The notes below the pieces were generated by a model that ran no database searches, was not told where the DNA came from, and saw nothing but the letters and a program-made list of their open reading frames with translations. A DNA stretch of 64,000 nt. Source: Limonium bicolor (Eukaryota; Streptophyta; Magnoliopsida; Caryophyllales; Plumbaginaceae). The DNA is taken from assembly GCA_023374045.1 (NCBI GenBank), contig CM041776.1, forward strand, positions 322,859,925-322,923,924. Direction: 5' to 3'. Below are positions 16,495 through 50,100 of this stretch, piece by piece (the first letter of the stretch is position 1; each line of letters begins with the position of its first letter). The position numbers and the translations under genes are program-made.

Positions 16495-16799
16495 CCCCCC
16501 GCAAGCCGTAGGTAAGCAAGGTTACCAGGGCTTGGAGGAATACTCTCATGCATACCCATGCGCTGGATTTGTTCTCTGTAACGCGTCCCGGGTAACGCCT
16601 TAGTCATCATATCCGCCAACTGAGAAGAGGTGTGAGTATAAACAACATCAACTAAACCCTGCTGGATCTTCTCCCGAACGAAATGGCAATCAATGTCAAT
16701 GTGTTTGTTCTCTCATGAAATACTGGGTTCCGCGCAATATGTATAGCGGACTGATTGTCACATTTAACTGGAATTGGTGTAATATTGTCCACGCCCAAT

Positions 16800-17336
16800 T
16801 CACAAGAGGCGTGTCAACCAAGTTAACTCCGCAGTAACACGACGAAGAGACCGATATTCTGCCTCAGCACTAGAAAGAGAAACAGAGCCCTGTTTCTTAG
16901 TCTTCCATGAAATAGGACTATTGCCCAAGAAAATATAATACCCAGAAACCGACCGTCGAGTATTAGGGCAAGCCGCCCAATCTGAATCACAGTATGCGAG
17001 GAGATCCAGTGGGGAAGAACTACCTTGAAGAGTGATCCCATAGTTCAGATTTCCTTTAACATAACGAAGAGCATGCAAAGCAGCCTCCATGTGAGACGCA
17101 GAAGGGCTTTGCATAAACTGGCTAAGATGTTGAACCGTAAAACTGATGTCAGGCCGGGTGTTGGACAAATAGTTGAGTTTGCCCACAAGTCGTCGATAAA
17201 CCGTGGGATCATGCATAGGGGGGCCATCATCAGCTAATAACCGTTGACCAACTACCATAGGGCCTTGTGCATTCTTCTGAGACTCGCACCCATATTCCTT
17301 AAGAAGATCTGAGCAGAACTTGCGTTGGGACAACAC
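16800..17336 (-). pseudogene. Copia RNase H
   Basis: Copia RNase H landmarks: LNYLSNTRPDISF, YCDSDWAACPNTRRSVSGY, SWKTKKQGSVSLSSAEAEY. It follows RT after a one-base frame break. The C-terminal end is close to the usual Copia stop, leaving about 300 bp of 3' sequence before the LTR. Confidence 0.88.
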
Positions 17337-18202
17337 GTACCCTGGGGTGTAGGGACAAACTCAATCCCAAGGAAGTAATGCAATGGTCCCAAATCTTTGA
17401 TTTTAAAATTCAAATCTAACGCCTTCTTGATCGCATCTATTTCCTCCTGATGCGCACCAACTGCCAGTATATCATCCACATAAACAGCCAGAAAAAGACG
17501 CCCTCTGTGTGTGTCTTTGTAGAATAAAGAATAATCATTCTTCGACTGACAAAAATGAAGACTACGCAAGAAAGTAGCTAACTTAGAAAACCATTGACGA
17601 GAAGCTTGCTTGAGACCGTACAGGGATTTCTTGAGTAAACAAGCTTTGTTATGCCCATCAACATCAAGACCAGGCGGAACTCTCATATACACCTCCTCGT
17701 CAAGATCACCGTGTAGAAATGCGTTATTAACATCGAGTTGATGAATAGTCCAACCTTTACTAAGAGCAACAACAATAAGCGCCCGGATGGTAGTGAGCTT
17801 GACAACCGGCGAAAAGGTCTCATTATAATCCAACCCATGCCGTTGTGTAAAACCCTTTGCAACCAACCGAGCCTTATACCGCTCCAAAGTGCCATCCGAT
17901 CGAAGCTTTACCTTGTAAACCCATTTGCAACCAATAACCTTTTTGCCCTTAGGCAAAGTAACAACATCCCAGGTATCATTCTGCTTGAGAGCCCTCAACT
18001 CAGCATCCATTGCTGTATTCCAATGATCATGTCGTGCAGCCTCTTGATAGCTGCTAGGCTCACTCATATCAACAGTAGGCAACTTAGACTGGCAGGACAA
18101 GAGAGCTATAGAAGCTTGAGGTGTGATGTTAGTGAGGCTGTCATAACGAGCGAGCAGATTACTGTGAGCACCCTCCGTCTTATAAACCCTCTCATCGAGC
18201 AC
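17252..18202 (-). pseudogene. Copia reverse transcriptase
   Basis: RVT_2-type RT beginning with NDTWDVVTLPKGKKVIGCKW, the polymerase motif QLDVNNAFLHGDL and the catalytic YVDDILAVG. It is open until about 17340, where one missing base after PTPQG shifts the frame. The true continuation is the RNase H frame at 17336-16800. Confidence 0.9.
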
Positions 18203-18205
18203 CTC

Positions 18206-19354
18206 CTAGAATGCAGTATTACAAACATAATCAGCAAGATAACTCGGTGGATTACTCACACGACCAGAACGTCGTACCGGAGCATCATGTTCCTGCAAAT
18301 CAGCAGTAACAGGCTGATGTGGCTGCATATCATCATCAAAAATGGCATAAGAAACGTCATCGGACAAAGGCTGTGCACTTGTTCGTTGCACAGGAAGACA
18401 ACTCTTCATATATGGAAAAACAGAAGGATGGAACTTAACATCGCGGCAAACCTCCACTGCCTGAGTACGAACATTAAGGACCTTATGTCCTTTCTTTCTG
18501 GGATCCTCCCCAAGATAAACGCAAGATTCACCCCTCGGACTAAACTTGCCTGAATGACCATGCAAAATCGTCTTGTAACAAAGACAACCAAAAGGTTTAA
18601 TGCCAGTATACTCCACCTTTTGTCCATACAAGCTCTCAAACGGCGTTCTGCCTTGCAACGCCTTCGTAGGAAGCCTGTTGATCAAATAGGTGGCATGTAG
18701 AATGCACTCGCCCCAAAAGGAAAATGGTACATTGGACTGGAAGAACAACGCTCTTGCCGTTTCGAGCAAATATTTGTGCTTGCGCTCTACTACAGCATTC
18801 TGCTGCGGCGTGTAAGCACAAGTAGTCTGATGTACAATCCCCTCTTTAGCAAAAAATTGTTGACCTTCAATAGAACTACCAAGTTCTTTTGCATTATCCG
18901 TCCGAACAACCTTGACTGTTGTCTCAAACTGTCTTTCTACCATCTTGATGAAATTGACAAGAACTTGCCACCCAGTACTCTTCTGTTTGATAAGTTGTAC
19001 CCAGGTTGTCCTAGTAAAATCATCAACAAAACAGACGAAGTACTTGTAGCCATTATATGTATCCTCCCGAAACGGTCCCCAGATATCCACATGTATCATC
19101 TCAAAGGCCCGTTTGGTTTTAATAAATGAACTGGCAAAAGGCAATCGCTGAGCTCTACTTTTGTAACAAATATCACAAACATAATCAACTGGAATTTCTG
19201 AATCTTTGATTAAACGCATCGAAACGAGTTTGGGAAAAGGAACATGTCCGAGTGCAAAATGTAACTGAACTGCTCTAGAAAAAGAACTATGACAGCCCGT
19301 TTCAACTGGATCAGATGTTGCGACCCGCCCACTGGCTCTGCTACAGACTCGCAC
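18206..19354 (-). pseudogene. Copia GAG-pre-integrase and integrase
   Basis: Zinc-binding HHCC segment (LHFALGH then CDICYKS), then the rve core with D in HVDIWGPF, D in VVRTDNAKEL and E in NAVVERKHK, so the D,D,E triad is present. The frame ends at an in-frame TAG (18206-18208). The same frame continues into the RT segment, so one nonsense codon separates integrase and RT. Confidence 0.88.
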
Positions 19355-20226
19355 GCCACGGGCTGGCCCAACATCGCAGCTGGACTTGAACTGCGCCGGC
19401 CCAGAGCCGCATCGATATCCTTTGGGTCCAACGTGTAGAGTCCGTCAGAGCCGCGCCCAACCTTCTCAATTCGCCCTGTGAAGCGGTCCTGGACAGAGAC
19501 AGAATCAACACCGAAAATTAGGGTACAATCAAGCTCGAGAGTAAGCTTGCGCACCGACACCAAGTTGAACTGAAATTCGGGGATGAACAACACATCGGTA
19601 AGACGAAATCGCTCTCCCAGCTGAATATCACCGATAAACCTTACCAACTGCGGTCGACCGTCAGGTAAGAGAACTGTTTTACCATTACGCAAATGCCTCC
19701 AATTCATAAACAACCCCGCATCACCTGTCATGTGATCGGTGGCTCCCGAGTCGACTATCCACTGTTTGGCAAGTAAGTTTTGTGAATTTAGCAAGCAAAG
19801 TGTAGCGCAGTAAGAATCGGTACCTGCGAAATTGCAAAAATTTGGGTCTTCTGGTTTGGCTGTTGTGTTTGCACTGCGTATTAAATCTGTGATTTGCTGT
19901 ATCTGTCTGGGAGTAAGCCCATCATCTCTGTGCGATTGTGCCTGCTCTGTGCTCGTTTTCTCTGTCTGTTCTTCTGTATGAACTAGACTGGCATAAGCCT
20001 TCTTTCTGCGTGCGAGTATATTCTCGCGTCCGTGCAAGAAAAAACAGTCCTGTTCGATGTGGCCATTCTTCTTGCAATGGTTACACCGCTGTTTCTGATA
20101 ACAATTCTCAGCACTATGCCCGGGTTTCTTACAATATGTGCACTGTACCTTGCTTCTGTTTGGCTCGCGGCTGTTAGGGTTTTTCAAACCCTCTGAGTGT
20201 ATGTTCCTCTGACTGTAAAAAGACAT
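19300..20226 (-). pseudogene. Copia nucleocapsid and aspartic protease
   Basis: Two CCHC zinc knuckles, CTYCKKPGHSAENC and CNHCKKNGHIEQDC, then the protease with active site WIVDSGATDHMTGD near 19730-19760. The frame is lost just after the protease region (about 19300-19340), where the integrase frame takes over. Nucleocapsid binds element RNA; the protease processes the polyprotein. Confidence 0.85.
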
Positions 20227-20959
20227 CGAAGATCATCCTTTTCCGGTTTACCTCCCCTCTGTTCTTCCTCCTGCATAACAATGGAGAAAGCCTTCTCAAG
20301 CTCCGGTGACTGTTGCATAGCCAAAATCTGCCCACAAATAGATAAGTATTCCCTGTTTAAACCCATCAAAAAATGCACTAATTTGTCTTCATCTGATGCC
20401 TTCTTTATTGCCTTATTAATACCGCAAGTACATCCACCACAAGAACACCTCAGCGGTGGACGTGCCTGCTGAAGTTCCCCCCATACTTTCTTTAGTTTGT
20501 TGAATAATCCACCACTGACAATTCTCCTTGTTTTAACTCCCCGGGTCACGTTTGAGAGAATGAACCACAGCAAGATTGCTGTGTTCATACGTTAGACAGA
20601 GGGTTTCCCAAACTTCTACCGGATCATCATTGTAGCGGACACTCTCAAGTATGTTGGTGAAAGTGTGTTCTTAATCCACGAAACCACCAGAGGATTCGAT
20701 CTCATCCAAGCAGAATAACGCAAGGTATCTTTTCATCTGGTTTCTCTACTTTACCAATTACAAAACCATACTTATTTTTTGATTTTAATGCTGTTGTCAT
20801 GTCAAATTTCCAGCCGAGAAACCCGGTTCCACTAAACTTAGAAGTGAGCATCAAACCTGGATTCTCAGCAGCATGAACGAAGATAGGATCGTTGACGTCG
20901 ATGACGCTTGTCGAAGAAGCGGCTGTGGCGGCATCCTTCTTCCCTTTGTCGTCTGCCAT
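20190..20959 (-). pseudogene. Copia gag, frame-broken
   Basis: Starts at 20959 with MADDKGKKDAATAASS, then NPGLMLTSKFSGTGFLGWK, the typical Copia gag N-terminus. The first frame closes at 20702. The capsid-like part resumes in another frame (KLVHFLMGLNREYLSICGQI, near 20350-20400) and closes near 20184, where the nucleocapsid continues in a third frame. At least two frameshifts therefore lie in gag. In an intact element this makes the virus-like particle shell. Confidence 0.8.
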
Positions 20960-20995
20960 TTGTATAAGAAACGCCCAGAAAAACTACTCTTTCCT

Positions 20996-21009
20996 TGCTC
21001 TAGATACCA
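20996..21009 (-). promoter_or_regulatory. Copia primer-binding site (tRNA-iMet type)
   Basis: Minus strand reads TGGTATCTAGAGC directly after the LTR terminus CTAACA. The usual plant sequence is TGGTATCAGAGC, so this copy has one extra T. Confidence 0.75.
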
Positions 21010-21236
21010 TGTTAGAATTGATAGAAGAGTGAACTTTTGTAAAAGAGAAAGCTTTGTTGTATATTCAACGTGTAAAAACTTCTGTTTGCAACCAATGAAT
21101 ATAAAGAGAACAATTCCCTAACAACTTGTAACTAACCCCAAAGATAAAGGAAAAATAAATAAAGATAACAAGGTTTGTTAAGATATTCTAAATATCTTAT
21201 CTCTTATTATATCGTAATTCTATTTTACTCCCAATA
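21010..21236 (-). repeat. Copia 5' LTR
   Basis: 227 bp, about 98% like the other LTR by eye. It is followed on the minus strand by the primer-binding site and flanked on the right by GGTAG (21237-21241). Confidence 0.9.
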
Positions 21237-26447: not shown

Positions 26448-26725
26448 CACTAGTACAAAAATGACCTATTTCGGCGCCCCTATCTCGGCGGTTGTACTAG
26501 GAACCGCCGAGATAGGTCCTCCGTAATTTTTTAATTAAACAAATAACATCTATTTCGGCGGTTCCTAGTAACAACCGCCGAAATAGATATATTTGGTTGT
26601 CTATTTCGGCGGTTGCTACTAGGAACCGCCGAAATAGAGGTTATTTTTTTAATTAAAAAAATTACGGAGGACCTATTTCGGCGGTTTTTAGTAACAACCG
26701 CCGAGATAGGTCGCTTAATAAACAC
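26448..26725. repeat. CACTA left terminal and subterminal repeats
   Basis: Several inverted pairs of (C)TAT(T/C)TCGGCGGTT and AACCGCCGA(A/G)ATAG, for example around 26490-26515, 26549-26586, 26600-26637 and 26670-26710. In characterised CACTA elements such subterminal arrays bind TNPA; here each pair can form a hairpin. Confidence 0.85.
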
Positions 26726-26739
26726 CCCCACCCAGCCCC

Positions 26740-26955
26740 GACTCCGTTACGCTGTTACAACCCTAACCCCTCTTCTCTTCTCTGTAACGGGCGAATTTGA
26801 GTACCAATCTCGACAGCCACCACACCACCGCCGCTCCGACGTCCGTCGCCCTCCTCCCGCCTTCGCCGTCGTCGCGCCGCCGTCGCCGGTCGTGCGTGGT
26901 TGTCATCGGAAGTTGTTGCTGCAACCAAGAACCGCAGCTACAATATACTGGGTAA
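26740..26955 (+). promoter_or_regulatory. GC-rich leader exon candidate of the CACTA transcript
   Basis: A sharp GC-rich island (CCGCCGCTCCGACG, CGTCGTCGCGCCGCCGTCG) in AT-rich surroundings, starting just inside the left subterminal repeats. A GT donor candidate (tgggtaaaac) lies at about 26951. Likely a non-coding or short-coding first exon. Confidence 0.4.
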
Positions 26956-29600
26956 AACAAGTCCAATTCGGTTTTGACTAAAAAATTACAAATGTGTTGT
27001 TAAAATTGGTAGATGTGTGTCACATTATGATTGTTGATGCTGATATTTATTGTGTGTGTCAAATCTTTGAAAGATTTGGTTGTTAAACTAATCAAATTAT
27101 GTATGAACACAAGGTGTTTGATGAAATGTCTGAGTGAATATTTTTACTGTTTTTTGCCCTTTTTTAAGTATAGTTAGGCAGGGGCGGACCGACTTGGGTG
27201 CGTACTGTGTTTGTTGACACATATGGAAAAGAAAATTGCCTAACGTTTTACTTATTGTTATAATTAACTAATTTATTTATTAATTTAACACATTGTTACG
27301 GAGCAATAGAGATCTGTACTATATATAAACCCTAAAAAGTCTTAACAAAGCACTGCAACTCCGCGAGTCTGTAAAGACTGTAGAGGAGTACGAGCTTCTC
27401 TCCTATATTTTATTCATCAATCAATCAACATTAAATTTTATTTTTTTAATAGAATTACTTATTTACTTGTACGACGCATACTATTATATTCAACAGTAGC
27501 ATCAAATTTCAGCTTTTTAATCGATTAGCTAATGACAGTAGATTTATATCATGGTAAGACACATAGATCAGAAATTGATATCTTTTTTTTCTGCTGCCTA
27601 GTTTGCTATAGTGTTTGCCAAAATCAAAATATTTTGTGGGTTCAATTTTTTTCTAGTCATTAATTTTTATATTTAGGTATTCAATAGTTTAACTATTAAT
27701 TAAAAACTTGTTAAGTAATTGTTAGTAACAATTTAATATATCTTACATTTGTTGAACTGAAATACAATTAATAGATATGGTATAATTAATAAAATTAGTA
27801 CATTTATTTCTATAGGTTTGATATGGAAAGGTTTTTTATAAGAAAAATAGCTTCATCATCGGAGCCAACGCCCGCCCAAGAAATAATTGATATACCGAAC
27901 GAATGTGGTTGATAAAGATGTAAACAAAGTCGTGTTGTTAGCAATATAGTGTTGCGCCCTCAATTGATACTTATTTTGCGTTTGCGTTGCCTCTGTAGAG
28001 ATTGGTACTGCTACACGTCTCGCATGCCCGATTGAGAAGAGGGGCTGAAAACAATTCCTTTAGGAACCGGTAATATACTTTAACTTATCTCTTCATTCTC
28101 TTCACTCGCTGTAAATTTTCAATTAACGTAACTACAAATAAGGAATAAATTTGGTATATATTAGTTTGGTTTATGATGGAAATTTGTGTTGTTGAATAAT
28201 TGGTGAATGCTTAATAATAAGCATGGTTGTGTCTTTGTAGAGGGAAATCACTAAATGGGTTCACCGGATTGAAGTCGTACGGGGCTGAATACCTTTCATT
28301 TGTGAACCCGTAATATACTCAACCTACATCTTCATCTTTTTAGCTCATTATATATAATTTTGCAATCCTAATTACAAACAATTAACATACGTAAACTAAT
28401 GAGTTTGTATTCTATCTACAGAGAAGTGGTTAACAAACTCCTCATTCATTGCACGGTAGATTGAAAGCGGAGTGGAAGAACGGTAATATAATCTAACTTA
28501 TCATTTTTCTCTTTTGTACTTTGTATTTGATTTCCACAAATTATTGGAATTTGGTTTGATGAATAAATTTGGTATATATTAGTGTGGTTTATGATAGAAA
28601 TTTGTGTTGTTGAATGATTGGTGAATGCTTAATAATAAGCATGGTTGTGTCCTTGATTTCCACAAATTATTAAAATTTGGTTTGATGGATAAATTTGGTA
28701 TTAGTTTGATTTGTGATGGAAATTTGTGTTGATGAATGGTTGGTGAATGCTTAATAATAAGCATGGGATAGGTAAAATTATGCAAAAGTCATGCCGATTT
28801 TTTTTTAAATTCTCTTCGTAATTAATATTGTTTGATGTATGTGTATATGTCTAACAATATCTAATTTTTTTTATCAGGTCTCACTACATTCAAGTCCGTG
28901 AATCACCTCTCTTGTTTCCGCCTTCTTCCATGTTGTCCTTTCCTCTCTGTGCACAAGTAAAGTAACTAAACCTTATTTTGTTAATAAATGCAATTATGTA
29001 TTTTAAATATAATTGCTAGTACATAATTTAGCTTCATTCCATATTTGTTGATGCATTTCTTTTGTAATTTATTTTTTGTTGCATCTCTCACACAGAAGCG
29101 TACCTCTCAGGAACCAGTCTCCCCTGTCCATAAATCCTTAAAAAACAAGTACGTATTTTAACTCTCGATTCTTTGTTAATCTCTAAACCGGTTTGAACTT
29201 ATACAGTGGAGAATTGAAAGCGTTGATTTGATGATCTGAATTTGCAATTGGTTTTCAGTTAGCTAGTAAAGAATTGATTTATTTTAATTGTTGGTTGCTG
29301 CCATTGTTGGAATGTTTGTGGTTGTGATGACTTTGGTGAGTGCTGAATAATAAGCACGGGATGTGTACAATTATGCAAAGGTCATGCCGAATTTTTTGTA
29401 GAAAAAGTATTCGTAATATTGTTTTAAACACCGGTTTCTGTTTTAGAAGTGCAACAATTTCTTAAATTTAAAATGCTAGTTTATTTTGTGTTTGCAACCT
29501 TAGAGTTAGGCTAGACTAATTGACAATCATCCCAGTCATGCTCCATTAGAAATAAACATGTGCAACTTAATACAGGCCATATTCTACAAAGGCTCTAACT
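26956..29600 (+). other. CACTA 5' intronic/leader DNA
   Basis: AT-rich with possible small leader exons (GC-richer patches near 27890-28070, 28250-28310 and 28880-28965, each followed by a GT) but no ORF. Four copies of a phrase GTGAATGCTTAATAATAAGC (one diverged) occur at about 28201, 28620, 28741 and 29335. Confidence 0.45.
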
Positions 29601-29607
29601 CACACCT

Positions 29608-32600
29608 GTGATCTGTTGCACATGTAGTATGGAGCGTGACTGGATGTATGGTGATAGAGGCGAACATTTTGACAAAATGCTGAAAGAGTTTTGCAAAGCT
29701 GCAGTGCAACACAAGGACAGGACAAAGGCGGAGAAAATTCCATGTCCTTGTGTTGATTGTGGTGTGGTTAGACATTATTCAAGCATCAACCTCGTACAAC
29801 TCCATGTGAAGACCCGTGGTTTCATGCCACATTATACAAAATGGATTTTTCATGGAGAACGTGTTGAAGATAATGCTTCATCTTCCTACAGTCACGATCG
29901 GTGTAACTCAAGAACCGAGCAGACATTCGATACTACTAACGAGTCAGAACTCCCAAGCGCTTCCGGAGTCAATGTTGACAGTGAGTCGACTTATCATGAT
30001 GAACAAATTGACGAGATGCTTGATAACGTTGAGGATAACTTTGTCGACCGGCCGGATGAGTATCAAAGGTTGTTGGACGCATCCAAAACGGCGTTGTATC
30101 CTACTTGCACTAAGTACACGAAATTGACAGCTATATTGAATTTGTTCAACCTGAAGGGAAGATATGGATTGAGTGACAAAGGTTTCACGGCATTCCTCGA
30201 GCTGATTCATGATATGCTACCGGATGAGAACGGTCTCCCTACGACCACGTATGAGGCAAAGAAATGGGTGTGTCCAATGGGAGTAGAGTACAAAAAAATT
30301 CACGCGTGTCCAAACAACTGTGTGTTGTACAGGGGTGAATACGAACATCTGGACAATTGCCCGAAATGTTCGTTGTCCCGGTATAAGCATAAAGATGGTG
30401 AGTACTCCTCCGTTCAGAAAAAAAGCCCTCCAGCAAAACTTGTTTGGTATTTGCCGATTATACCCAGATTCAAACGGTTGTTTGCGAATCCGAAAGATGC
30501 AAAGAACATACGATGGCATGCGGAGGGTAGAAAGAGTGATGAGAAACTAAGACATCCAGCAGATGGGCCTCAGTGGAGAAACATCAATAGACGGTACAAA
30601 GAACATTTCGGACATGAAGATAGGAATCTGAGGCTTGGGTTATGTACTGATGGAATGAACCCGTACGGCACATTGAGTAGTCAACATAGTACATGGCCTG
30701 TTCTGCTAGTGATCTACAATTTGCCCTCATGGTTGTGTATGAAACGAAAGTACATCATGTTATCTCCTGATATCTGGTCCCAAGCAGCCAGGTAATAGCA
30801 TTGATGTGTACCTTGCCCCTCTGATCGACGATCTGAAGCTATTGTGGAATGAGGGGACCGTGGTATATGATGCTTATGCAAGAGAGAATTTCACGCTCAA
30901 GGCTTTGTTGTTCTGTACCGTCAATGACTTCCCTGCGTATGGGAACTTGTCCGGTTACACGGTTAAAGGAGCATTTGCATGTCCCATTTGCGAGGAAGAC
31001 ACTTGTTCGGACCGTTTAAAACATTGTGGGAAGAATGTTTATATGTGTCATCGACGTCTTCTCCCCGAAGATCACCCTTATCGAGTAACGAAGAGAAAGT
31101 TGTTCAATGGTCAAGCCGAAACTCGTGTGGCCCGTCTACCTCTGAGCTCTGAGGAAGTGTACGAAAAGGTTAAGGACATTGCAAATGTATTTGGAAACAC
31201 ATCAAAACCGGCGAAAAACATTTGGAAAAAGTGTTCTATCTTTTGGGAACTACCTTATTGGCGTCATTCTGTGAGACACTGCTTAGACATCATGCACATT
31301 GTGAAGAACGTTGGTGAGGCAGTGAGTGGGACTTTACTCAATATACCCGGCAAAACAAAAGACGGATTGAAAATCAGAAAGGACATGCAAACCATGGGTA
31401 TACGAAAGGAGTTACACCCACAAGAGAACGGGAAACGAATCTACCTACCTCCTGCATGCTACACGCTCTCAAAGGCTGAAAAGATTAGTTTCTGCAAATG
31501 TCTGCACTCGGTAAAAGTACCGTCTGGGTACTCTTCAAACTGGAAGAACATTGTATCGATGAAGGATTTAAAACTTTTAGGCATGAAATCTCACGATTAT
31601 CATGTACTGATGTTACATCTTCTTCCGGTCGCAATTCGAGGGATATTGCCATCTGATGTCAGAAATGCTTTAACTCGGTTATGTTTCTTTTTCAACGCTG
31701 TTTGCTCCAAGGCAATTGACGTAACGTCTCTAGATGATCTACAACGTGAAATTGTTATCACATTATGTCAACTAGAGATGTATTTCCCACCATCTTTCTT
31801 TGATATAATGGTACATCTAATTGTGCACATCGTTCGAGAGATACAGTTCTGTGGTCCGGTATACTTACGGTACATGTACCCTTTTGAACGGTACATGGGT
31901 ATTCTGAAAAGTAGAATGAAGAATAGGTATCGACCAGAGGGGAGCATTGTTGAAGCAACAGTGACTGAGGAAGTCACGGAATTTGTGACCGATTATTTGA
32001 GTGAGGCAGAGTCTATTGGTATCCCAAAACCACGACACTATGGCAGGTTTAAGGGTAAAGGTGTTATTGGTAGAAAGATCGTGCAAGTTTCGCGTCTACT
32101 TATTCATCAAGCACATTTGTTTGTCTTACAACATCTTGAGGTTGTTGAACCTTATTTGGAAACCCATATGGTTGAGTTAAGGCATCAAAATCCTTTGAAA
32201 GGCCACATTTGGCTGACAAAGGAACAAAACCGAGTTTTTATCCAATGGTTCAAAGATCATGTGTTGACATTAGCATCATCAGATCCAGAAGCTGTAAGCG
32301 AAGAGATCAGATGTTTGGCAATCGGACCTGAAACTAATATTACATCATTTGAGGGGTATGATATTAGTGGGTATACATACTACACTGCACGTCAAGATGC
32401 CAAATCGATAAACCAGAATAGTGGGGTAAAAATTGAAGCTGCTGCCACTGAGTACCACAGCGGTAACCGATCTCAACCAGTTAGTAATTGGTATTATGGT
32501 GTCATCGAGGACATCTGGGAACTAGACTATGACATTGATTCCTTTCTGTTGTTCGGTGCAAGTGGGTGGACAACCGACGCGGGTACCAAAATGATGGAGG

Positions 32601-32904
32601 GCTTACCTTGGTTGATCTTTCACGGTTACACGGTTATAATGATGATCAATTTGTTCTGGGAAAGGATTGCGAACAAGTGTGGTATGTTGAGGATCCGAAA
32701 GACTGCAGATGGTCTGTTGTTCTTCCAGGAAGAAGGCCGGTTGTAATCGAAAATGAAAATGAGGATAACGATGAAAATGAGACTGTAGAGGAAACATCCT
32801 TGTTTCCTACTGGATTACCGGATTCGATTGATGATACCGAAAACGATTTGCTCTACGCACGATCTGACCATGATGAGGGTGTTTGGGTAGAAAATATGAA
32901 ATGA
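29608..32904 (+). pseudogene. CACTA tnp2 transposase (TNPD-like), two frameshifts
   Basis: Likely start is the ATG at 29629 (MERDWMYGDRGEHFDKML), the transposase-associated domain with CPCVDCGVV. The Tnp2 domain follows (CPNNCVLYRGEYEHLDNCPK, WHAEGRKSDEKLRHPADGP). The first frame ends at 30795; homologous reading (PLIDDLKLLWNEG, VNDFPAYGNLSGYT, CLDIMHIVKNVGEAV) resumes in another frame, so a frameshift lies at about 30745-30765. The DUF4218-like part has LEMYFPPSFFDIMVHLIVHI and PFERYMGILKSRMKNR. A second shift at about 32540-32560 moves the DUF4216-like end to the 32566-32904 frame (GGLTLVDLSRLHGYNDDQF, CRWSVVLPGRRPVV). Length about 1090 codons, full-size for the family. It would cut and paste the element, but this copy cannot make one continuous protein. 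Confidence 0.9.
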
Positions 32905-33831
32905 TTTATGTTTTTGTACGTGAAAGGTAATGTTGTTAGTAGAATGTAGACTGTAATGTCATCTTAACTGTTATTGTTATGCATCATAGTATTTATGTTA
33001 TGACTTTATCTGATGAAAATGCTTTGTTATTTTTTTTGCAGTGGATGATCACCCTATGGATGACCCCATTGGACGGCTTCTCATGGAGAACCTGAGCCAC
33101 AGCAGAATAGACCAAGTAAGCGGGTCACAAGAGGAGGAAAGAAGAAGAAGGACCAGTTAGCAGTACAGGAGACTGAGGCTGGCCCTTCACAGCAGACCGA
33201 AGAGGAGTCAGTTGTCCCACCAGAGGCGAAGAAGCAAAAGAAGAGAGGTGCAACACGTGGGCTGAAGGCTAACAAGGGCCCTCCTACAAAACCGGTGGAC
33301 TTCAATCAGTTCAACCAACCCCATGGTAATTGGAAGAATGACTTCACCGCTTACGGTAGCCATTTGGTGAAGTCATATTGCAACATAAACCACAACTGGA
33401 AGCAAGTGCCTCAATCATTGAAGGATACTATGTTTCAGCGTCTTCAGGTAAATCTCTACATTATTACTATGATCTTTTGTGAAATAATAGAACATTTATG
33501 TTTACTTTACTAACTGAATGATCATGTACGTAGTCTCGTTTCTCCGTGGATCCCGCACTTAAAAAGGATGTGCTATCAGCGATGTCGAAACAGTTCCGGG
33601 ACCACAAGAATAAGTTGGCTGACAAGTTCATCTACAAGATGCCTACTCCAGAAGATCCAGATGAGCCAGATCATGGTGGAGACGGTGAGAGACCACCATG
33701 GGAGGTTTACGAGGGCATAACAGAAGAGCAATGGCTACAATTTGTTGAGAGGCGTCACACACCGGAGTTCCAGGTGCACTTTATTGTCATACATACATAA
33801 ATTAATCTTAATTTCTTATTTTTTTGTGTTC

Positions 33832-33974
33832 AATTTCACTTAACATGATCCCATTAATTTATGCAGGCTCTCCGTGCGCAACAACAAGCAAATGCTAAGA
33901 AGAATCTGTACCCTCACCACTTAGGTGGAAAAAGTATTGCTCAAAGGGTACCAGAATGGGAGCAAAAAGGATAT
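33832..33974 (+). repeat. Left copy of 143-bp target duplication
   Basis: Runs from AATTTCACTTAACATG to GGATAT and includes a 3' splice site and the exon beginning ALRAQQQANAKKN. Equal in length to 38083-38225 and differing by one base (AAAAAGG versus AAAAGGG). Confidence 0.92.
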
Positions 33975-36900
33975 TGCCTCTCCTTATACAATCCAGACTC
34001 ACGCAGCGGATACTTACATACATACAGTGGGTGATACAATGCCGTTAGCCACCCACGTGACTAACAAGGCTACTACTACTGTTACATACAGCATCGGTCT
34101 GATGGACCGGAATCCCGAGTACTACATAACTACAACACATACTCCATTTACCAAAAAAAAGTACTACAATCTTCATTCCATACAATACTCCATGTACAAT
34201 ACAATTTAATTCACATACCGAGTCTACTAGGATCCTCATACAAGTATAATACCTCTTCCAAACTCATACATACTCACTAGGAGACTACTTACTACCATTC
34301 CTCACAACTACTTACTTCCTAGCTAAAGGTTGTGCCTCCGGGTCTCTTCCTGACCATATTCGCTCAGGTACCTGCACACTAAAAATGGTCCCCCGAAGGG
34401 GTCAAGCTTTCGCCGAGCATGATAACCCATACCCCGCGTACTAGTGAGGGTACGCCGACCACTTGTCGTATACATGCGGTTGATTCATTCAAAACATACA
34501 TGCATACATGCTCCTATACATAATATTGCAATACATTACGCAAGACATACACACATACATACACTTCATTACATACAAGAAGTACAACATAAACCATTCA
34601 ATACATACTTACCTCTTTCCAAATTACACACACATTACATACACAATATACAATTCTTGTTAGCTTCATTGGTCCACCCGGGTTAATCGGGTGGGGATTA
34701 CTCTTTTACTCGTTACTTCATACATACGCATACATACTCATACATACGGGATCCATACTTACTTACTCTTACTCTTACTCAAGTTAAGTCGTCGGGACCT
34801 CCGGCCCTGGGGACTACACCGTCCCACCTCCGGGATTTACTTGACTCACCCAATCCGGATGCTACCCATTTAAGGGATTTGGGCCGCGGACCAGTTTAAG
34901 AGTCAGGAATTGCAGCCAACCTCTTGTGACTCCGCATCCTCACTGTGGCGAAGCTATATCGGACTTCTACTCATTCCGGTTTACTCACTTAAGTTAGGAG
35001 TTAGGTATTAGGAATTAGCAGAAGTCATTCATTCAAGCCACAATAATACAATACAAGCTCATATACACATCCATACAAATACAGTGCAATATACAAGTAC
35101 ACTACAAAATACAATACACATCATCATCATCATTCATATGTTCATGAATTATACAAACTATTGTTCAAGACAAATATCAAGAACAATGTAAACAAGCACA
35201 AGTAAGTGCAATATAGTCCGATTCATGCATTTATCTTATTAGGTGATCAAATAAGCACACAAATCGGGTAACCAGATTAGGATACAGGGCATGAAGAAAT
35301 CATACCGTTCACCGTTGTACTTGTATCCAACTTTCCTCCGGTGTTCACAACCCAAGTCCTATAACATACATTGATCGAGTGGTTAATTCCCTATGGGTAA
35401 CCCAACACGTTTCATCCTTTATGTTTCCCAATGTACCATTACTAGTTCCTTAGATTTCATACTTAATTCCAAAATCATTTACTTCACATCATTTCCTAAG
35501 CTCATTTTCTTAGGTTCTTATGTGTATATTATTTTCTCCTTCCACCATCATTATTCTCCCTGTGGTTTACTGCTTAAGCCCAAAAAAGATTTTTTTTTTT
35601 TGACCGGACCTCCCCTGTGGGGCGGTCCCTAGGGGCGGTCCGAGACAGAAGCCATTTATGCTGCGAGATTCCAGTACTGGACCTCCCCACAGGGGCGGTC
35701 CGTAGGGGCGGTCCGAAACAGAAACCAATTTTTTTTTTTTATAATCTTCTCTGCACTGGACCTCCCCTGTGGGGCGGTCCCTAGGGGCGGTCCGTGACAG
35801 AAATGAATCCGTCCAGCTGAATTCGACTATGGACCTCCCCACAGGGCGGTCCATAGGGGCGGTCCACAACAGACCCTGTTTTTAAAAGTGTTTTTCTACA
35901 CATTCTGAACTCCAAATTCACCCCAATTTTTTTCTACTTATTCCACAATCTTTCCACATGTTTCCTACATGTTTAAACACATTAAAACATGCATTAAACC
36001 TCTCAAATCATGGTTAAACCCTTACTCAATTCTCAAATTCACAAACCTCAATTCTTACATTTTGCACTTTGCACACTAGTACACTTCTAACTTTCTCTTG
36101 CTAGTTCCCTACCTTCTACCAACTCACTTAATAACCATTCCAAATCCTTTATAACCATTTGCAATAGCTATACTCAAGTTCTTCATTCATTTCCAAGGTT
36201 ATGCACACCAACTTTCTTCCTAAATTCAAGGTACTCATACACTGTTTTGCTACAGATTTTTGATTCTCACTTCCTCCATCTATAGCTCCCTCTTACAATG
36301 CCATTCCTAAGGCTTATAATGCATTACACACCTCTCCTAAACTACCCACCTACTAGCTCCAATCAAAATCTGTTTCAAATACATGTTTTTCACCTAGTTC
36401 CTAGTTCTTAAGTTCTCTAGTTTCTAGGTAAATTTTGACATAGTCTCCCCTATATTTTTACATTCTCACCACATGTTTTAGCTCACAAAACATCACTCAT
36501 TTCACCTGCACCTGCTTGTAAACAACATTAATATACCAAGCTATCCACACAATACCAACACTAACATCATTAAATTCCTGCACATGCACATTTACTTCCC
36601 AATGTTCTACCCAAGCTTTAAAACCTCTTTCAAAGGCCTCAAATTGTTACATTCTATTCCTCATTATACTACAACATACCAATTACTCATTACCATATAC
36701 CTTACTCATTTTACTACACAAAATCTGTTACACTACAATACATAAACCAACTCAAGGTAAGAGCATTTACCTTGTGATTCTAGTTTCTCTTTCTTTCTTT
36801 CCCTTCCCTTCCTTTCTTCTTTCTTTTCCTTTCTTTCCTCTTGTTCTTGGTTTCAAATGGAGTTCACACTCCAATGCTACAGCCCATACCAATACACAAA

Positions 36901-38082
36901 TTCTAACTTAGAATTTCCTCCTTAAACTAGCCTTGGGTTTATACATGCTTAAGGTTTAAAAGAGTATTACCTTCAACCACTAAGTGGAGTACTTGGCTAG
37001 CAAGAGAGCAAGATTTCAGCACCAATGAAGAGACCAAAATCAGCTGGAACAACAAGACACCAACAAGGGCTCATTTGGAATTTTTGTTTTGCCCACAAGG
37101 GCTAGAAAAAGGTAAGCTTTCAAGGATATTTTTACCTCAAAATGACAAGGAGAAGGAGGTGGTTCTAATGGTGGTGTTGAAGCTCCAAATGCTGCACACC
37201 CATGGAGATGAAGATGCTCGTTTTCGAATTTTGAAAGGAGGAAGATGTTCTCCTTGATGAGAGGATTCCAATGGTACAAGTTTTATAATTTTGGAGGAGA
37301 TTTGAGGGATAACAAGAGGAGAGAAGGTAGAGTTTTTGTTGGGATTCTTATTTCTCCATTGTCAACCGGTTGAGGAAGAAGAGAAATAGAGAGGAGGAGG
37401 TGAGTGTGCTGTACGTGAGTGAAGAAATGAGAGGATAGGAGAGAGAGAGTGTGAGTGGTAAAATAATATATGTTACTTTTTGCTTTTTAAAATGCTTTTG
37501 TCTTTTGTGAATAAAAAGAGAATAGAGAGTGTGTGTGAGAGAGAGCAAATCGTGACACACACAGCCCATGTGGGTTTTAGAATTCAATTTACAATATTGG
37601 ACACATAAGTTTTGGTTATTTATGTTTCTACCCCACAACTTCCTGTTTTTGACAGTTTTTACTATTTTCTCGTTTTAGTTGGTTCTAAAGCTTCACTAAT
37701 ATTTATTAATGGCTATTTAGTTGACCAAAATTGTTACGAGTCTATTTGACCCGCTTAAAGTCACGTTTTCCCGGTTACCTCGAAAAACGCGCTTTAATGT
37801 TCGTTAGTGTTTTTAATCCATTTTAAGGATCCGTTTTCTTCGGGATTTATTCCCTAATATTTTTTTAGACTTAATTAAGCCTTTAGAATCCTTATAATAC
37901 GCTAACCGAGGTCTCATACCCCCTATGGTTATTTAACGCTTATTTAGCGTTTTACGCTTTTTAAGCGTTTCTTTATTTCTTTTGGATTTATTTTTCCTTA
38001 CCAATATTACGTAGGCACTATTAGGCTCTTAAATACTTATTAGAATTATTTTAATCGCTATATTTAAGGTCAGGGTATTTCA
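33975..38082 (-). mobile_element. 4.1-kb LTR-like insert (probable solo LTR)
   Basis: Bounded by TG (TGCCTCTCC) and CA (GTATTTCA). On the minus strand it starts TGAAATACCCTGACCTT, close to the TGTAATACCC start common in plant Gypsy LTRs, and ends GGAGAGGCA. No gag or pol is present. It contains CATACATA-rich DNA, a four-copy GGACC/GGTCC hairpin repeat (35606-35880) and pyrimidine-rich DNA at 36780-36840. Large LTRs of this size occur in Tekay- and Tat/Ogre-type elements. It splits an exon of the CACTA ORF2 gene. Confidence 0.65.
35606..35880. repeat. Four-copy hairpin repeat GGACCTCCCC...GGGGCGGTCC
   Basis: Units start at 35606, 35679, 35758 and 35831 (spacing 73, 79 and 73 bp). Each carries GGACCTCCCC(t/a)(g/c)(t/a)GGGGCGGTCC, then a second aggGGCGGTCC, then a CAGA-type spacer, so each unit can fold on itself. 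Confidence 0.85.
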
Positions 38083-38225
38083 AATTTCACTTAACATGAT
38101 CCCATTAATTTATGCAGGCTCTCCGTGCGCAACAACAAGCAAATGCTAAGAAGAATCTGTACCCTCACCACTTAGGTGGAAAAAGTATTGCTCAAAGGGT
38201 ACCAGAATGGGAGCAAAAGGGATAT
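38083..38225 (+). repeat. Right copy of 143-bp target duplication
   Basis: Same limits as 33832-33974. Here the exon continues normally into LPTDGSLDVSGRRMKVWELS, so this copy is joined to the intact downstream gene. Confidence 0.92.
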
Positions 38226-40974
38226 CTGCCCACGGATGGCTCATTGGATGTCAGTGGCAGAAGAATGAAAGTGTGGGAGTTAAGCCACATTCCGAAGAAC
38301 TCTACTCCCGAAAATCCTCAATACGATGAAGCCACGAGAGCAGTTATTGCTCAAATGGTAAGTGATAACATTTCATTTTCAGTCAAACTGTTCATTTCAT
38401 TTGTATATGAACTTATGTTAAACTAATAACTGTATTTGTGTGTTGTATTAGGGTGAATTAAGCTCTCAGCTCACCCAGGGCACCTGGACCTCACAGAGGA
38501 ATGATGATCCTCTTACACGCGCTCTTGGTAAGAAGGATCATCCAGGTCGTGCCATTGGGTTTGGTGGGCACGTTGGTATCCGCCAGGCATTTGGCGCACC
38601 CGGTCCAGAATCAGCCAGGGAAAGTCGATTAGCTACGAGGAGCACCTGAGAGCGTTGGCTGAGATGGAGCAGAGGATTACTCAGAACGTCGACGAGAGGA
38701 TCGCTCAGGCTATATCAAGGATTTAGCCACAGCAACATGAAAGCCAAGAGGTTTCTCGACCACCAGTTGATCAGTCACCCATTCAGCAGAGTGCACCGGT
38801 AGTGAGAAGTAGTGTCCACTCGGCTGATCCGTTTCCCTATGCATCTCTAAAGGTTAGACTAACATTTCAATTGAGTACATGACGATTATGATTTTTCACT
38901 TGATCACTAATATCATCATAGAAGAATTCACAATTTTTATCTAAACAAGTTCCACATAACACTCAGGCACCCACTGAGTGCCATCTGTTTTTACAAATTG
39001 GAGTAGAAGAGGTCATGGTTGCATGCGGAAAACTTTTCCCCTCTCTTCCAAGTGATATTGTGCACGGTGAACCACTCCGACATTACCATGCACGAGTGCT
39101 TCTAAACGAATTTGTTGCCGAGCATGCTGACGTCGGTTTACCGGTGCCAATCCCAAAAGACCTACCTTGCGTTCTGCACAAACTGCGACAGTGCAGTGGC
39201 CTGTACGATTGATCAGACTCCCTGGGCAGGTATTACTCTTAACCGTTGCTATAAAACTATTGGTGTACCACCTTGCATCCATATACTTAATTAGACTAAT
39301 ATCATAGGATATGAGCCGACCGAAGACTGATAAGGGCAAAGGAAAAAGAATTGCCACACCTGTGCAATCAAAGGCATCCACAAATTTTGTGCTTAGACCT
39401 GCTTTGGTGGGGAAGAGAATATTGGCCGGCTTGTCGACTAACATGCAGATTCTGCATTCCTCGTTGTTGCTGCTACCACCTGATTCTGATTCCCTCACTG
39501 TGGAAGATCCCGAGCGGATATTTCACTATATAGTTCAAGGAGAAGATATACATCGATTTGGGATGTATATGTCCGACTTCGAGGAGTGCTTCAGGAGGGA
39601 TTGGTTGAATGTGTCGATTATCAAGTCGGCCGCCATGTGAGTGACTTCTACTTCTACCTTTTATATTTTGAATTCATTAATTGGTGATGAATTAGATGTT
39701 TGAATAAAAAGTTAATGACTAATGATATTGCCTCATAGGTGGGTGCATGATAAGGCGATCAATGTCTATGAAGATCAAAGATTTGGATTCCTGTGTCCTG
39801 CTATGTGCAGTGCAGTCCAGATGACAAGTGATATGCAAGGCCTTATGCAATATATGACGAATGCCCTCTTTGAATGTTCTAACAAGTCATTTATTATGCT
39901 GCCATATCATTCAGAGTATGACATTGACTATTTCTCTTAGTATTATCTAAAACATATAGTTTGTGTTAGTTTCTTAATGATTTCAACACATTGTGTAATT
40001 TGTGGACAGTCGACATTGGTCTTTGCTTGTGCTGGTGATGTCGAAGCACCCACGAATCTTGCAATTTGACTCACTTGGTAGGGGTGCCAAGAGACCGAAG
40101 ATCTCCACCGCAATACTGGGGTAATTAGTTTGTTATCGTAAACAACAATTATTATTACTTAACATTAACTGTTTCATAACTTGCTACTGATGCTTAAAAC
40201 TATATATATTGCTGATGTATATAGTTCCATGAGAGCTGCATTATCTCTCCAGGGTATAACAATGAAGAGTACCATCCCTTGGAACACTGTCAAGGTACTC
40301 TATTAATTGATAAATTTGTGTGATAATGTTTAAACTTGTTTATAACTGTCAATATGTGCGTTTGTATAGTGTCCGGTGCAGCCTGGGGGTTCAGAATGTG
40401 GATACTTTGTCATGAGATTCATGAGTGACATAGTAGGAGCGGCAAACCTTTTACCAGAGCACTCGTTAGACAAGGTAACATTCTTTGAAAGTTTTAGTTA
40501 TGCTCTTTACATGTTGTTAGACTTGTACATTTTAGATTAATGTTCATTTTTTTCAAGGCTTACGAAGAAGTGTTCAAAGGTGGTCAGTATGATGATGCTC
40601 AAATTGTTGAGATGCTTGAGGAATGGTCGGAGTTCGTCTGCACAAGTTTAATGAATTGATGATCATGAAGATGTTTTGTGAACTTTTTTGAGTATGTAAA
40701 TGTAACTCTGTACACTTGTGGATAGTGTAATGGTAGATTTGAATTGTAATGGTGTTTTTTATTTGTAATGAAAGTGTGAATTGCATTGGTTTTGTTAACT
40801 CTCAAATTGTGGTGCGTCGTTGGTATTAATTGGGAGCTTTTATAACTTTTTAAATGTGTGTTGGAGCTCCCTGTGTGGATGAAGCTTTATTACAGGTCTC
40901 ATTGAAGCAAATGCGGTGAATATATATATATATATATATAAGCTGGAATGGAAAAAAACAAAAAAAAAATACCC

Positions 40975-41298
40975 CTATCTCGGCGGTTCTTAGAGAACAA
41001 CCGCCGAGATAGGCCCCTGGGATTGACCGATGGTGGGATTGACCATGAGTCTATCTCGGCGGTTCTTAGAGAACAACCGCCGAGATAGACCCATGGTCAA
41101 TCTCACCATCGGTCAATCCCAGGGGCCTATCTCGGCGGTTGTTCTCTAAGAACCGCCGAGATAGGTGCATCTAGTTCGGCGGTTTACAACCGCCAAAATA
41201 GGTGCTCACACCTATTTCGGCGGTGCTCATTTCGGCGGTTCACAACCGCCGAAATAGGCCCATTGGAACCGCCGAAATAGGCCCTTTTTCTACTAGTG
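40975..41298. repeat. CACTA right subterminal and terminal repeats
   Basis: Nested inverted copies of CTATCTCGGCGGTT/AACCGCCGAGATAG plus the CTATTTCGGCGG variant near the end. The block 41010-41130 forms a long hairpin: ggattgaccgatggtgggat matches its complement atcccaccatcggtcaatcc-like sequence at 41092-41122. It ends in TAGTG at 41298. Confidence 0.85.
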
Positions 41299-47109: not shown

Positions 47110-50100
47110 ATGGCGAACCAAAGGCAGAGGTTAGCTAGAAAGAGGTTAAAAAAGGGCACCCTGAACTGTTTCCCGCAAAAGAGCCAAACCCTCCAAAGGA
47201 TTCTAACAGTAAGAAGAAGGAAAAATCCCAGTTGAAGAGGAAAAAAACTGCTAAAACCCTAGAAGGTGTTGCTAAACATAGAAAATCAAACCTGAAGAGA
47301 CACCCTCTCAGAGTCCCTGGATTGAAGCCTGGGGATGGCTGCTTTATCTGTAAAGGAAATGACCATATTGCAAAGCTTTGTCCTGAGAGAGCTCAGTGGG
47401 AAAAGAATAAGGTCTCTCGCTTTGGACTTTTTTTTTCCTTTTCTTTTTCTTTTGCTGGTATTGTCGATCACTAAAGAGTGTTACGGTTCTGAGAAATGAT
47501 GCTAATTTAATCGTTCGCTTTCCTGTATTTCGGGCAGTTCACTGTCCTTTAATTACACGTCCGTGGTTATTCAACTGAACAATTCGGGGCGCCGAATCAT
47601 ACTAATAGCTGATCCAGTTGAAGCATGTTGGGACAATGCTAGAACCATTGATTGGTAGTGGGCTAAATCTCTAATATACAAACGAACTTGTGATGGCTGC
47701 AGACATGTTTATTATGTAGACAACGTGGTCACACGCTCAAGAGGTGTCCGAACAAGGGCAATGAATCTGTGGATGTTAGGCTGTGTTACAATTGTGGAGA
47801 AAGTGGCCATTCTCTATCCAGCTGTCCACAACCCCTACATGATGGTCAGACCTCCCTATTTTCTCAACTTCGATGTACCACTTTCTATAAAACAGAAAAC
47901 TATTATTTGCTGCAATTTTCTGATTGCTTACATCAACCATGTGTATCTTGTTTCCTGATCGAAATTTTCAACCCTATTTTGGTTTATTCCTCGCTGTTTG
48001 CATTTGCTTCAGCAGACATATGAATGAAGTAATATGACGTGTGAGACAATAAAGCAAAAACATAATTATAAATGCTGATGTGTATGGCTTTTAGAGATGA
48101 AAAGATAGTCTTGTGTCTATCTCCCAAATGGGGTGTTCTTGTTCCTGCAGTAGGTTTCTTTATATATGTGTACATATATATTTATAGTTTTGTGTCTCCT
48201 TGATATCCATCTTGTGCACCCTACTCAGAATAGCTGTTCTGGATGATGTCTGCAACTAGTTAGGCTTTTCAATGACTACTAATCTGTTACTGATTATAGA
48301 TCTGCGGTTCTACTGAGAACTCTATGGAAACCCCCTCTCTCTCTTGGTCTCGTTTGTATCTTTGTCCATTAATGTTTAACCTTCATGGGGTTCCAGCATT
48401 GTGAGATGGTTAACGTGGGAGTGTTCCAGATCTTGAGCTGCTGGACACTGATTTGATGACTATACAAACAGGCCCTTGGTTTTGCTTGGTGATCCTTCTT
48501 CTTTAATACTTATACTCTAGCTCAATCTTTAGGCACTCTTGTTTTATGAGAAAGATATGCTATGACAGTTACAGGTTTCATTGAAAAGCATGGATTATAG
48601 TGAGTTGCTATATTCCTATGAGTAAAAAGGTAGCTAGAACTACTGCCGTGGAAATGTTATGTTGGATGGTCAACTGTTGGGACTATATTGATGTTAAAAG
48701 ATTTTAGAACTTTCAGTAGATGCTGTTGAGGTCTCGGTGTTGCTAAATTGATTTGATATGCCATGCATAAAACATGGGCACTAAACAAATGATGGAATAG
48801 GTGACCATTGACTGATACTCACTGATTGTAATATGGTCATGAAGTAGACAAGAACCAGATGTCCAGAACTGGGGTTTTTGATAGGGCCTAACTAACTATA
48901 GTGGATCCAATATCTAGTAGTAGATAAAATCTTTAATACTGTCGAGAATGTTAGTAGATAGGAAGTTAGTATATAAATAAGGAGGCACATGGGGTCTGTT
49001 TGGGGCAAACAAAAGTTTTGTATAGGTTTGGCCTTTGGGTTGGTTTGTTGATCTGAACAGGCAGAGCTTTGCTCTGTTTTAGGCAGTTTTTGTCTTGATC
49101 ATCTCTTGTATTCCTTCATAGCTTCTCATGAAGTATATATGAAGTAGATAAGTACCAGATGTCCAAAACTGGGGTTTTGGTAGGGTCTCACTTACTATTA
49201 GTGGATCCAATAGCTAGTAGTAGATAAAATCTTTAATACTGCCGAGAATGTTAGTAGATAGAAATTATAGTATATAAATAAGGAGGCACATGGGGTCTGT
49301 TTGGGGAAAACAAAAGTTTTGTATAGGTTTGGCCTTTGGGTTGGTTTGTTGATCTGAACAGGCAGAGCTTTGCTCTGATTTAGGCAGTTTTTGTCTTGAT
49401 CATCTCTTGTATTCCTTCGTAGCTTCTCATGAAGTAATATGATGAAGTAGACAAGAACTAGATGTCAGAACTGGGGTTTTTGATAGGGCCTGACTTACTA
49501 TTAGTGGATCCAATATCTAGTAGTAGATAAAATCTTTAATACTGCATAGAATGTTAGTAGATAGAAATTATAGTATATAAATAAGGAGCACATGGGGTCT
49601 TTTTGGGGCAAACAAAAGTTTTGTATAGGTTTGGCCTTTGGGTTGGTCTGTTGATCTGAACAGGCAGAGCTTTGCTCGGTTTTAGGCAGTTTTGGTCTTA
49701 ACCATGTCTTGTATTCCTTTGTAGCTTGTCAGTTTTCTGGGGTGGATGTGTAGTTGTGATGAAAGTGCCTACTATTGCTGTTTCCACGTACAAATGTAGT
49801 CATTATGTAATAACTAATATGTCCTGTTGTTTTATCTGTAATTCGAAAACTTTTATCTTGATGTGAGAGTGTACTGAGCCAACTTTAAATAATAAGCTTG
49901 CAGATGATTTGTTTGCCTTCTATGTTTAAAGTCAGTCGGAACTTGGGTGCTCCCTATTTTTCCATTTGTTTATATTCTATTTCCTTCTCTGTGCCAGTTG
50001 GATGGAGATGAAACTTGAATGAGCGAATACCTTAATGGATTAAATTGAAGATCGGAGTAGAGTTAACATTTGTCCTGCTTCAGGGACCTCAAATATAACT

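What the first reader, a model, noticed from the sequence alone, without database searches (positions are those of the whole stretch)
33832..38225. 143-bp target duplication flanking an exact TG...CA LTR-like insert
The order is T(143 bp)-insert(4108 bp)-T(143 bp). Both copies of T have equal length with one mismatch and abut the TG and CA termini exactly. Integrase-made duplications in plants are about 5 bp. The 5-mers at the two junctions (GATAT left, AATTT right) do not match each other. Two readings: (a) recombination between two same-oriented LTRs that had inserted 143 bp apart on two copies of this locus, leaving one half of each original target duplication; (b) insertion by repair of a widely staggered double-strand break. 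Either is a rare, clean structure, and T includes a splice site and part of an exon of a transposon gene.
Basis: partly seen in the sequence, partly recalled or inferred. Interest (0 to 1): 0.8.

Follow-up and report, generated by a model that had tools for sequence, protein, structure and literature searches.

The report
Botched one-ended retrotransposon LTR insertion
A plant jumping gene (a CACTA transposon) holds a piece of another jumping element, one end of which was inserted cleanly while the other lost about 39 bases and was stuck on by repair, leaving 148 bases of the host gene copied twice.

Summary
The duplicated target is real (142/143 identical, 4,251 bp apart), but the insert is not an exact TG...CA LTR. 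The window's own 2.9-Gb genome could be searched. The insert belongs to a large Gypsy-like LTR family (over 5,000 first-look candidates), in reverse orientation. Its right end (38082) is the family's true LTR start. Its left end is not an LTR end: in 28 of 28 other copies read, the match starts only at base 33979 and the LTR runs on for 36-39 bp (39 in 24) to its true terminus. The "TG" is target sequence: a second copy of the structure, 44.4 kb downstream, reads GGGATATCTGCC|TCTCC, so the target duplication was 148 bp (148/148 identical there), and the window copy lacks one C. 28 of 28 other CACTA copies read are empty at this site. Recombination of two intact offset LTRs, reading (a), is refuted in its simple form. 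One integrase-type end plus one truncated, repair-joined end with a long host duplication is what is reported for one-ended retroviral integrations. I favour that (0.5), followed by collapse to a single LTR; later break repair of a normal insertion is the main rival.

The parts
26448..41298 (+). Host: CACTA (En/Spm-type) DNA transposon, 14,851 bp including the LTR and the extra T, with terminal inverted repeats (CACTAGTA...TACTAGTG) and matching 3-bp TSD AAT
   Evidence: Inverted repeat I9, 30 nt, 90%; TSD AAT/AAT; transposase domains PF02992, PF13963, PF13960 in 29599-32746; PF03004 across the joined empty site
33832..33978 (+). T1, left copy of the target duplication (147 of 148 bp; one C missing after GGATAT).
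   Evidence: the second genomic copy reads GGGATATCTGCC|TCTCC, and T1 and T2 there are 148/148 identical
33975..33978 (+).
   Evidence: 28 of 28 family copies read, other than the window and its neighbour copy, match only from base 5 of the query 33975-34374
33979..38082 (-). Single LTR of a high-copy Gypsy-like family (Del/Tekay-like ends), 4104 bp, lacking the terminal 39 bp of its U5 end at 33979
   Evidence: the ten LTRs of five relatives with both LTRs are 4164-4562 bp long
38073..38082 (-). Intact U3 end of the LTR (minus strand TGAAATACCC), joined directly to target AATTT: the integrase-type junction
   Evidence: In 28 of 28 fetched copies other than the two at this site, the same terminus is followed by the purine-tract complement (12) or by other flank (16)
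38083..38230 (+). T2, right copy of the target duplication (148 bp), continuous with the rest of the CACTA gene

Best explanation
One-ended (half-normal) integration. Shown: an LTR of a Del/Tekay-like family sits in a CACTA gene; its U3 end is intact and joined to the target as integrase would join it; its U5 end lacks 39 bp and is joined without overlap to target sequence 148 bp to the right of the U3 junction; those 148 bp are therefore present twice. Inferred: integrase joined only the U3 end of the cDNA; the free, trimmed U5 end was attached by host repair after 148 bp of the intact target (sister, homologue or another CACTA copy) had been copied; later recombination between the element's two LTRs removed the internal region and left the single LTR. 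The structure is now present in at least two copies, in a tandem repeat of about 44.4 kb.
For: Left end: 28 of 28 other copies read (best-scoring of 5339 candidates; 40 scored, 30 fetched, 2 of them this structure) run 36-39 bp past the insert's end (39 in 24) to TGTAA..., with TGTAACACCC in 26 of 28, then primer-binding-site complement (clear in 12) or other flank. Right end: 28 of 28 have the same terminus. Five relatives with both LTRs have 5-bp TSDs (4 exact, the fifth 4 of 5 bases) and LTRs TGAAATACCC...GGGGTGTTACA, so the family normally integrates by the book. Empty sites in 28 of 28 other CACTA copies read. T1 = T2 over 148/148 bp in the second copy. In experimental one-ended integrations of HIV and avian retrovirus DNA, one junction is normal, the other end is often truncated, and most commonly the host DNA there is duplicated, usually by far more than 5 bp and up to hundreds or thousands (PMC5041404, passages and Discussion). 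Loss of only 39 bp from a roughly 4143-bp LTR fits a trimmed cDNA end; a break at random in the LTR would fall there with a chance of about 0.9% (arithmetic).
Against: No microhomology at the aberrant junction (0 bp), whereas the retroviral study reports a short homology there usually, although not always. The internal region is missing, so a second event (LTR-LTR collapse) is needed. The titles and abstract openings listed by my paper searches showed no such event in a plant, so the precedent is from retroviruses. The order of events is inferred. Several of the 28 comparison copies share flanks, so they are not all independent insertions.
Confidence: 0.5

Rival explanations
1. Normal insertion, later damage. 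A full element or solo LTR integrated normally at AATTT with a 5-bp TSD. A later break (for example during gap repair after CACTA excision) removed the left side; the left flank was re-copied 143 bp too far from an element-free CACTA template and end-joined to the inside of the LTR.
For: Explains the intact right junction, the truncated left one, the duplication and the missing internal region in one repair event. Element-free CACTA templates are abundant and nearly identical (40 matches to T scored of 1123 candidates; 28 of 28 read are empty). T1 in the window carries an A at position 137 that is an allele of other CACTA copies, as if copied or converted from one.
Against: The break would have to fall within 39 bp of the end of a roughly 4.1-kb LTR (about 0.9% by chance). 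No CACTA copy with a normal LTR at this site among the 28 read (a partial test: 36 other matches were scored, of 1123 candidates).
Confidence: 0.27
2. Capture of linear retrotransposon cDNA at a double-strand break whose two nicks lay 148 bp apart: fill-in gave the two T copies and end-joining trapped the cDNA (modified reading b).
For: Duplications of this kind fit the paired-nick model summarised for rice insertions (Vaughn and Bennetzen as cited in PMC7407515, passages only). The left junction has no overlap.
Against: The right junction is exactly at the CA end of the LTR with no extra bases. The review describes insertions of 10-1000 bp made of tandem or nearby duplications and short ectopic pieces, not 4 kb of an LTR. 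Needs LTR-LTR collapse too.
Confidence: 0.13
3. Reading (a): two same-oriented LTRs had inserted 143 bp apart on two copies of the locus and recombined.
For: A duplication product is possible in principle; [quoted passage not shown]
Against: The left junction is not an LTR terminus: 39 bp are missing and the TG is target sequence. The CACTA TSD AAT/AAT matches, so an exchange between CACTA copies at different places is unlikely. A second insertion would need its own later end deletion.
Confidence: 0.04
4. Assembly artefact: the second T or the LTR is misplaced.
For: The region is highly repetitive and no reads were available.
Against: Two copies of the structure, 99.24% identical over 4079 aligned LTR bases (31 substitutions), show the same two junctions and differ at T1. 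If the 44.4-kb repeat is itself two misplaced haplotypes, two molecules still carry the structure.
Confidence: 0.04

Closest known systems
Aberrant one-ended retroviral integrations (HIV-1 with hindered integrase; avian sarcoma-leukosis virus DNA with one bad end), PMC5041404
   Same: One normal end, one truncated end, long duplication of host DNA next to the aberrant end
   Different: Natural plant insertion; only one LTR remains; no microhomology at the aberrant junction; no proof that integrase was hindered
Del/Tekay Gypsy retrotransposons of plants (att sites described in PMC4029996)
   Same: Family U5 end GGGGTGTTACA fits the type A att; LTRs of 4.2-4.6 kb lie within the overall range reported (1143-4831 bp); PBS, PPT and 5-bp TSD in relatives
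   Different: U3 end TGAAATACCC differs from TGTAACACCC at positions 3 and 6, which are among the most conserved; the LTRs are longer than every eudicot subgroup average in that paper (1190-3737 bp); the copy in the window lacks its U5 att
Solo LTRs formed by unequal recombination in plants (PMC7251063)
   Same: A single LTR without internal region
   Different: The classical solo LTR keeps both LTR ends and its short TSD; solo LTRs without TSDs are described, but none of the passages I saw describes a long target duplication
Tandem duplications with insertions from paired-nick break repair in rice (Vaughn and Bennetzen 2014, seen only as cited in PMC7407515)
   Same: Direct duplication of flanking DNA with inserted DNA
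   Different: The inserted DNA here is a near-complete LTR with one exact integrase-type end

Membership tests
Exact, intact solo LTR | Both LTR termini present | tested here: not met
   U3 end present; last 39 bp of U5 missing, by comparison with 28 of 28 copies read
Exact, intact solo LTR | Flanked by a 5-bp TSD | tested here: not met
   148-bp duplication instead
Del/Tekay LTR retrotransposon | U5 att type A (GGG at -10..-8, and the conserved positions -1 to -3 and -6) | tested here: met
   10 of 10 LTR ends of five relatives read GGGGTGTTACA, GGG at -10..-8; that the conserved letters at -3..-1 are ACA is recalled, as the logos are not held. The window copy itself lacks this site
Del/Tekay LTR retrotransposon | U3 att TGTAACACCC, positions 3, 6, 9 and 10 most conserved | tested here: inconclusive
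   TGAAATACCC, 8 of 10; positions 3 and 6 differ; 10 of 10 LTR starts of five relatives read the same
Del/Tekay LTR retrotransposon | Methionine-tRNA-type PBS and purine tract next to the LTRs | tested here: met
   TGGTATCAGAGCG after LTR1 and AAGGGGG(G)TAGAT before LTR2 in five of five relatives; that this PBS is the initiator-methionine type is recalled
Del/Tekay LTR retrotransposon | Chromodomain and reverse-transcriptase phylogeny | not tested
   One 1.8-kb internal piece gave no open frame over 80 aa on the element's strand; not scanned, not pursued
One-ended aberrant integration | One end normal, joined as by integrase | tested here: met
   Right junction at the exact U3 terminus
One-ended aberrant integration | Other end often truncated, with a long host duplication | tested here: met
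   39 bp lost; 148 bp duplicated
One-ended aberrant integration | Short homology at the aberrant junction (usual, not obligatory) | tested here: not met
   0 bp overlap between CTGCC|CACGG (target) and CCAA|TCTCC (LTR)
One-ended aberrant integration | Made by integrase acting on one cDNA end only | not testable with these tools
   Inferred from the structure
Recombination between two offset LTRs (reading a) | LTR termini at both junctions | tested here: not met
CACTA transposon (host) | CACTA terminal inverted repeats, 3-bp TSD, tnp2 transposase | tested here: met

The most novel reading that the evidence does not exclude
One-ended integration, known from retroviruses with hindered integrase or a damaged DNA end, happens naturally in plant Gypsy elements and is an unrecognised source of long target duplications around solo or truncated LTRs. 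A family like this one, with thousands of candidate places in one genome, would allow it to be counted genome-wide.
Probability: 0.4. Interest if true: 0.6.

Novelty: new member of a known kind. Interest (0 to 1): 0.42.

Why it matters
It shows that a 'target duplication' far longer than integrase makes can come from a single faulty insertion, not only from two insertions and a rare exchange. If such cases recur, the standard filter 'TG...CA plus 5-bp TSD' misses a class of real insertions, and plant genomes hold a natural record of failed integrations that can be counted. It also shows how a chance TG beside a missing base can imitate an LTR end.

Tried and rejected
Before the genome answered, I compared the insert's ends with att sequences. 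The right end matched 8 of 10 (0.3% of the 4242 TG sites in the window do as well or better), the left only 5 of 10 (32% of 4080 CA sites do as well). That pointed to a false left end, which the genome copies then showed. As a control, the Copia element in the window with a perfect TSD ends TG...TA, so weak termini alone would not have been proof.

Viral contigs were scanned for the 15-base LTR end: 56 stretches with an exact match; comparing the insert with them gave seven alignments of 17-26 bases, read as chance. Protein evidence inside the insert: 10 of the 25 listed open frames of 55 aa or more that overlap it were scanned for Pfam families (one, nine); one weak match below its curated cut-off, so no coding part was found among those scanned. 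The joined transposase exons found no homologue at E <= 0.001 in the protein collection, which takes only candidates of similar length, but do match PF03004. A mismatch-based age of T was dropped, because the A/G at T position 137 is a polymorphism of the CACTA family.

A whole-genome pattern search for further right junctions of this kind did not complete: the same request was sent 20 times. So the number of copies of this structure in the genome is known only as 'at least two'.
Full report
WHAT IS THERE. The two T copies are at 33832-33974 and 38083-38225, 142 of 143 identical. They lie inside a CACTA transposon, 26448-41298, with a 30-nt inverted repeat at its ends (90%), a matching 3-bp TSD AAT and tnp2 transposase domains. 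Joining the flanks through a single T gives a continuous Transposase_24 match (PF03004, E 1.9e-8). So T occurred once in the ancestor, and the insert interrupts an exon.

THE OWN GENOME. After repeated busy answers, the genome search showed that the window is C1:322859925-322923924 of a 2.92-Gb genome. T has 40 scored matches of 1123 first-look candidates. Four of the 40 belong to two T-insert-T structures: the window's, and one 44.4 kb downstream (T at 322938126 and 322942380). Of the other 36, I read 28: 8 with flanks and 20 short stretches. All 28 run straight from T into CTGCCCACGG, that is, they are empty sites; 27 of them are preceded by the same TTC and one by TTT.

THE INSERT. The right end of the insert found 40 scored places among 5316 candidates; 30 loci were fetched. 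Two of the 30 are the window and its neighbour copy. In the other 28, the same terminus GGGTATTTCA is followed by the complement of a purine tract (12) or by other flank (16). So 38082 is the true U3 start of an LTR on the minus strand. The left end found 40 scored places among 5339 candidates, 30 fetched. Apart from the window and its neighbour copy, all 28 match only from base 33979 and continue for 39 bp (24 copies), 38 bp (3) or 36 bp (1) to TGTAA (TGTAACACCC in 26), then a clear primer-binding-site complement (12) or other flank (16, one of which looks like a degenerate PBS). Several copies share flanks, so the 28 are not all independent. The insert therefore lacks about the last 39 bp of the LTR. 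Five relatives with two LTRs were checked at their ends only: all ten LTRs start TGAAATACCC and end GGGGTGTTACA; the PBS is TGGTATCAGAGCG; TSDs are 5 bp, exact in four of five and 4 of 5 bases in the fifth. Their LTRs are 4164-4562 bp and the internal parts 5381-5703 bp.

THE FALSE TG. In the neighbour copy the left junction reads GGGATATCTGCC|TCTCC, and T1 and T2 are identical over 148 bp. In the window the C after GGATAT is missing, which places TG next to the repeat and imitates an LTR end. The one mismatch in T (position 137, A or G) is a polymorphism of the CACTA family: the eight exact copies fetched have A; of 20 further copies, 19 have G and one has A with another difference. It may therefore come from conversion by, or copying from, another CACTA copy.

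WHAT THIS RULES OUT. Recombination between two intact LTRs offset by 143 bp would leave LTR termini at both junctions; the left one is not a terminus. The CACTA's matching TSD also speaks against exchange between CACTA copies at different places. An artefact is unlikely: the two copies carry the same junctions but differ by 31 substitutions in 4079 aligned LTR bases and at T1. The 44.4-kb repeat is patchy: 99.5-100% identity in the eight compared 1-kb windows of CACTA outside the LTR, 97.8-100% in 500-bp windows of the LTR, 98.1% across the CACTA's right end, 96.1-100% in ten windows beyond it. It could be a true tandem duplication with conversion, or two haplotypes placed in tandem. Either way two molecules carry the structure.

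MECHANISM. The structure is one normal junction, one truncated junction, and a host duplication that starts exactly at the normal junction. PMC5041404 (passages and full Discussion seen) reports this for retroviral DNA when integrase inserts only one end: the aberrant end is often truncated, host DNA is most commonly duplicated there, usually by much more than 5 bp and up to hundreds or thousands, and the authors propose that the free end primes copying of nearby host DNA, followed by homologous recombination. Copying from one side of the first junction gives a duplication. Here the free end would be the U5 end, cut back by 39 bp and joined 148 bp to the right of the first junction. Against it: no microhomology at the join, and a later LTR-LTR collapse must be assumed. 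A later break in a normal insertion explains the same letters, including the missing internal region, in one repair event, but needs the break within 39 bp of the end of a roughly 4.1-kb LTR. Break capture of cDNA is possible too. I give 0.5, 0.27 and 0.13; two-LTR recombination and artefact 0.04 each.

FAMILY. By its U5 end, PBS, PPT and overall LTR length range the family resembles Del/Tekay as described in PMC4029996 (abstract, passages, and sections 13 and 15 seen). Against: its U3 end departs at two of the most conserved positions, its LTRs are longer than any eudicot subgroup average there (the window's species was not determined), and chromodomain and reverse transcriptase were not tested. 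I call it Del/Tekay-like; 'Gypsy' rests on the same resemblance.

LIMITS. No reads, no second accession; the pattern search for more copies of the junction did not complete; only the best-scoring part of each repeat family was read. The titles and abstract openings listed by my paper searches showed no plant case of one-ended integration, but subscription journals are largely not held. Other papers were seen as passages only: PMC3601003, PMC3605345, PMC6317226, PMC6097286, PMC7407515, PMC2672092, PMC7251063, PMC1950507, PMC11899658, PMC12786077.

Noticed in passing
window 35860-37219: A 1,359-bp stretch of the LTR has no CpG inside it (37 expected, 39 GpC). Pieces at the same distance from the LTR start in five other LTRs have 8-15 CpG against 39-45 expected, although little of the stretch aligned between copies; in the neighbour copy the longest CpG-free run is only 521 bp.
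   Followed up: partly
window 28914-52537 and C1:322933249-322957000: A tandem repeat with about 44.4 kb between units: the second unit starts inside the CACTA; identity is 99.5-100% in CACTA windows outside the LTR and 96.1-100% beyond the CACTA. Either segmental duplication with conversion or misplaced haplotypes; its far end was not read.
   Followed up: partly
window 16263-21236: Copia element with perfect 5-bp TSD GGTAG whose LTRs end TG...TA (TGTTAG...CCCAATA), not TG...CA.
   Followed up: partly
window 26448-26720 and 40969-41298: Both ends of the CACTA carry inverted CTATTTCGGCGG / CCGCCGAAATAG motifs (subterminal repeats).
   Followed up: no
window 12902-13965 and 48828-49731: Tandem repeats with units of about 250 bp and 300 bp.
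   Followed up: no
window 35603-35881: Four GC-rich 55-nt repeats with GGACC/GGTCC inverted arms, in the middle of the LTR.
   Followed up: no
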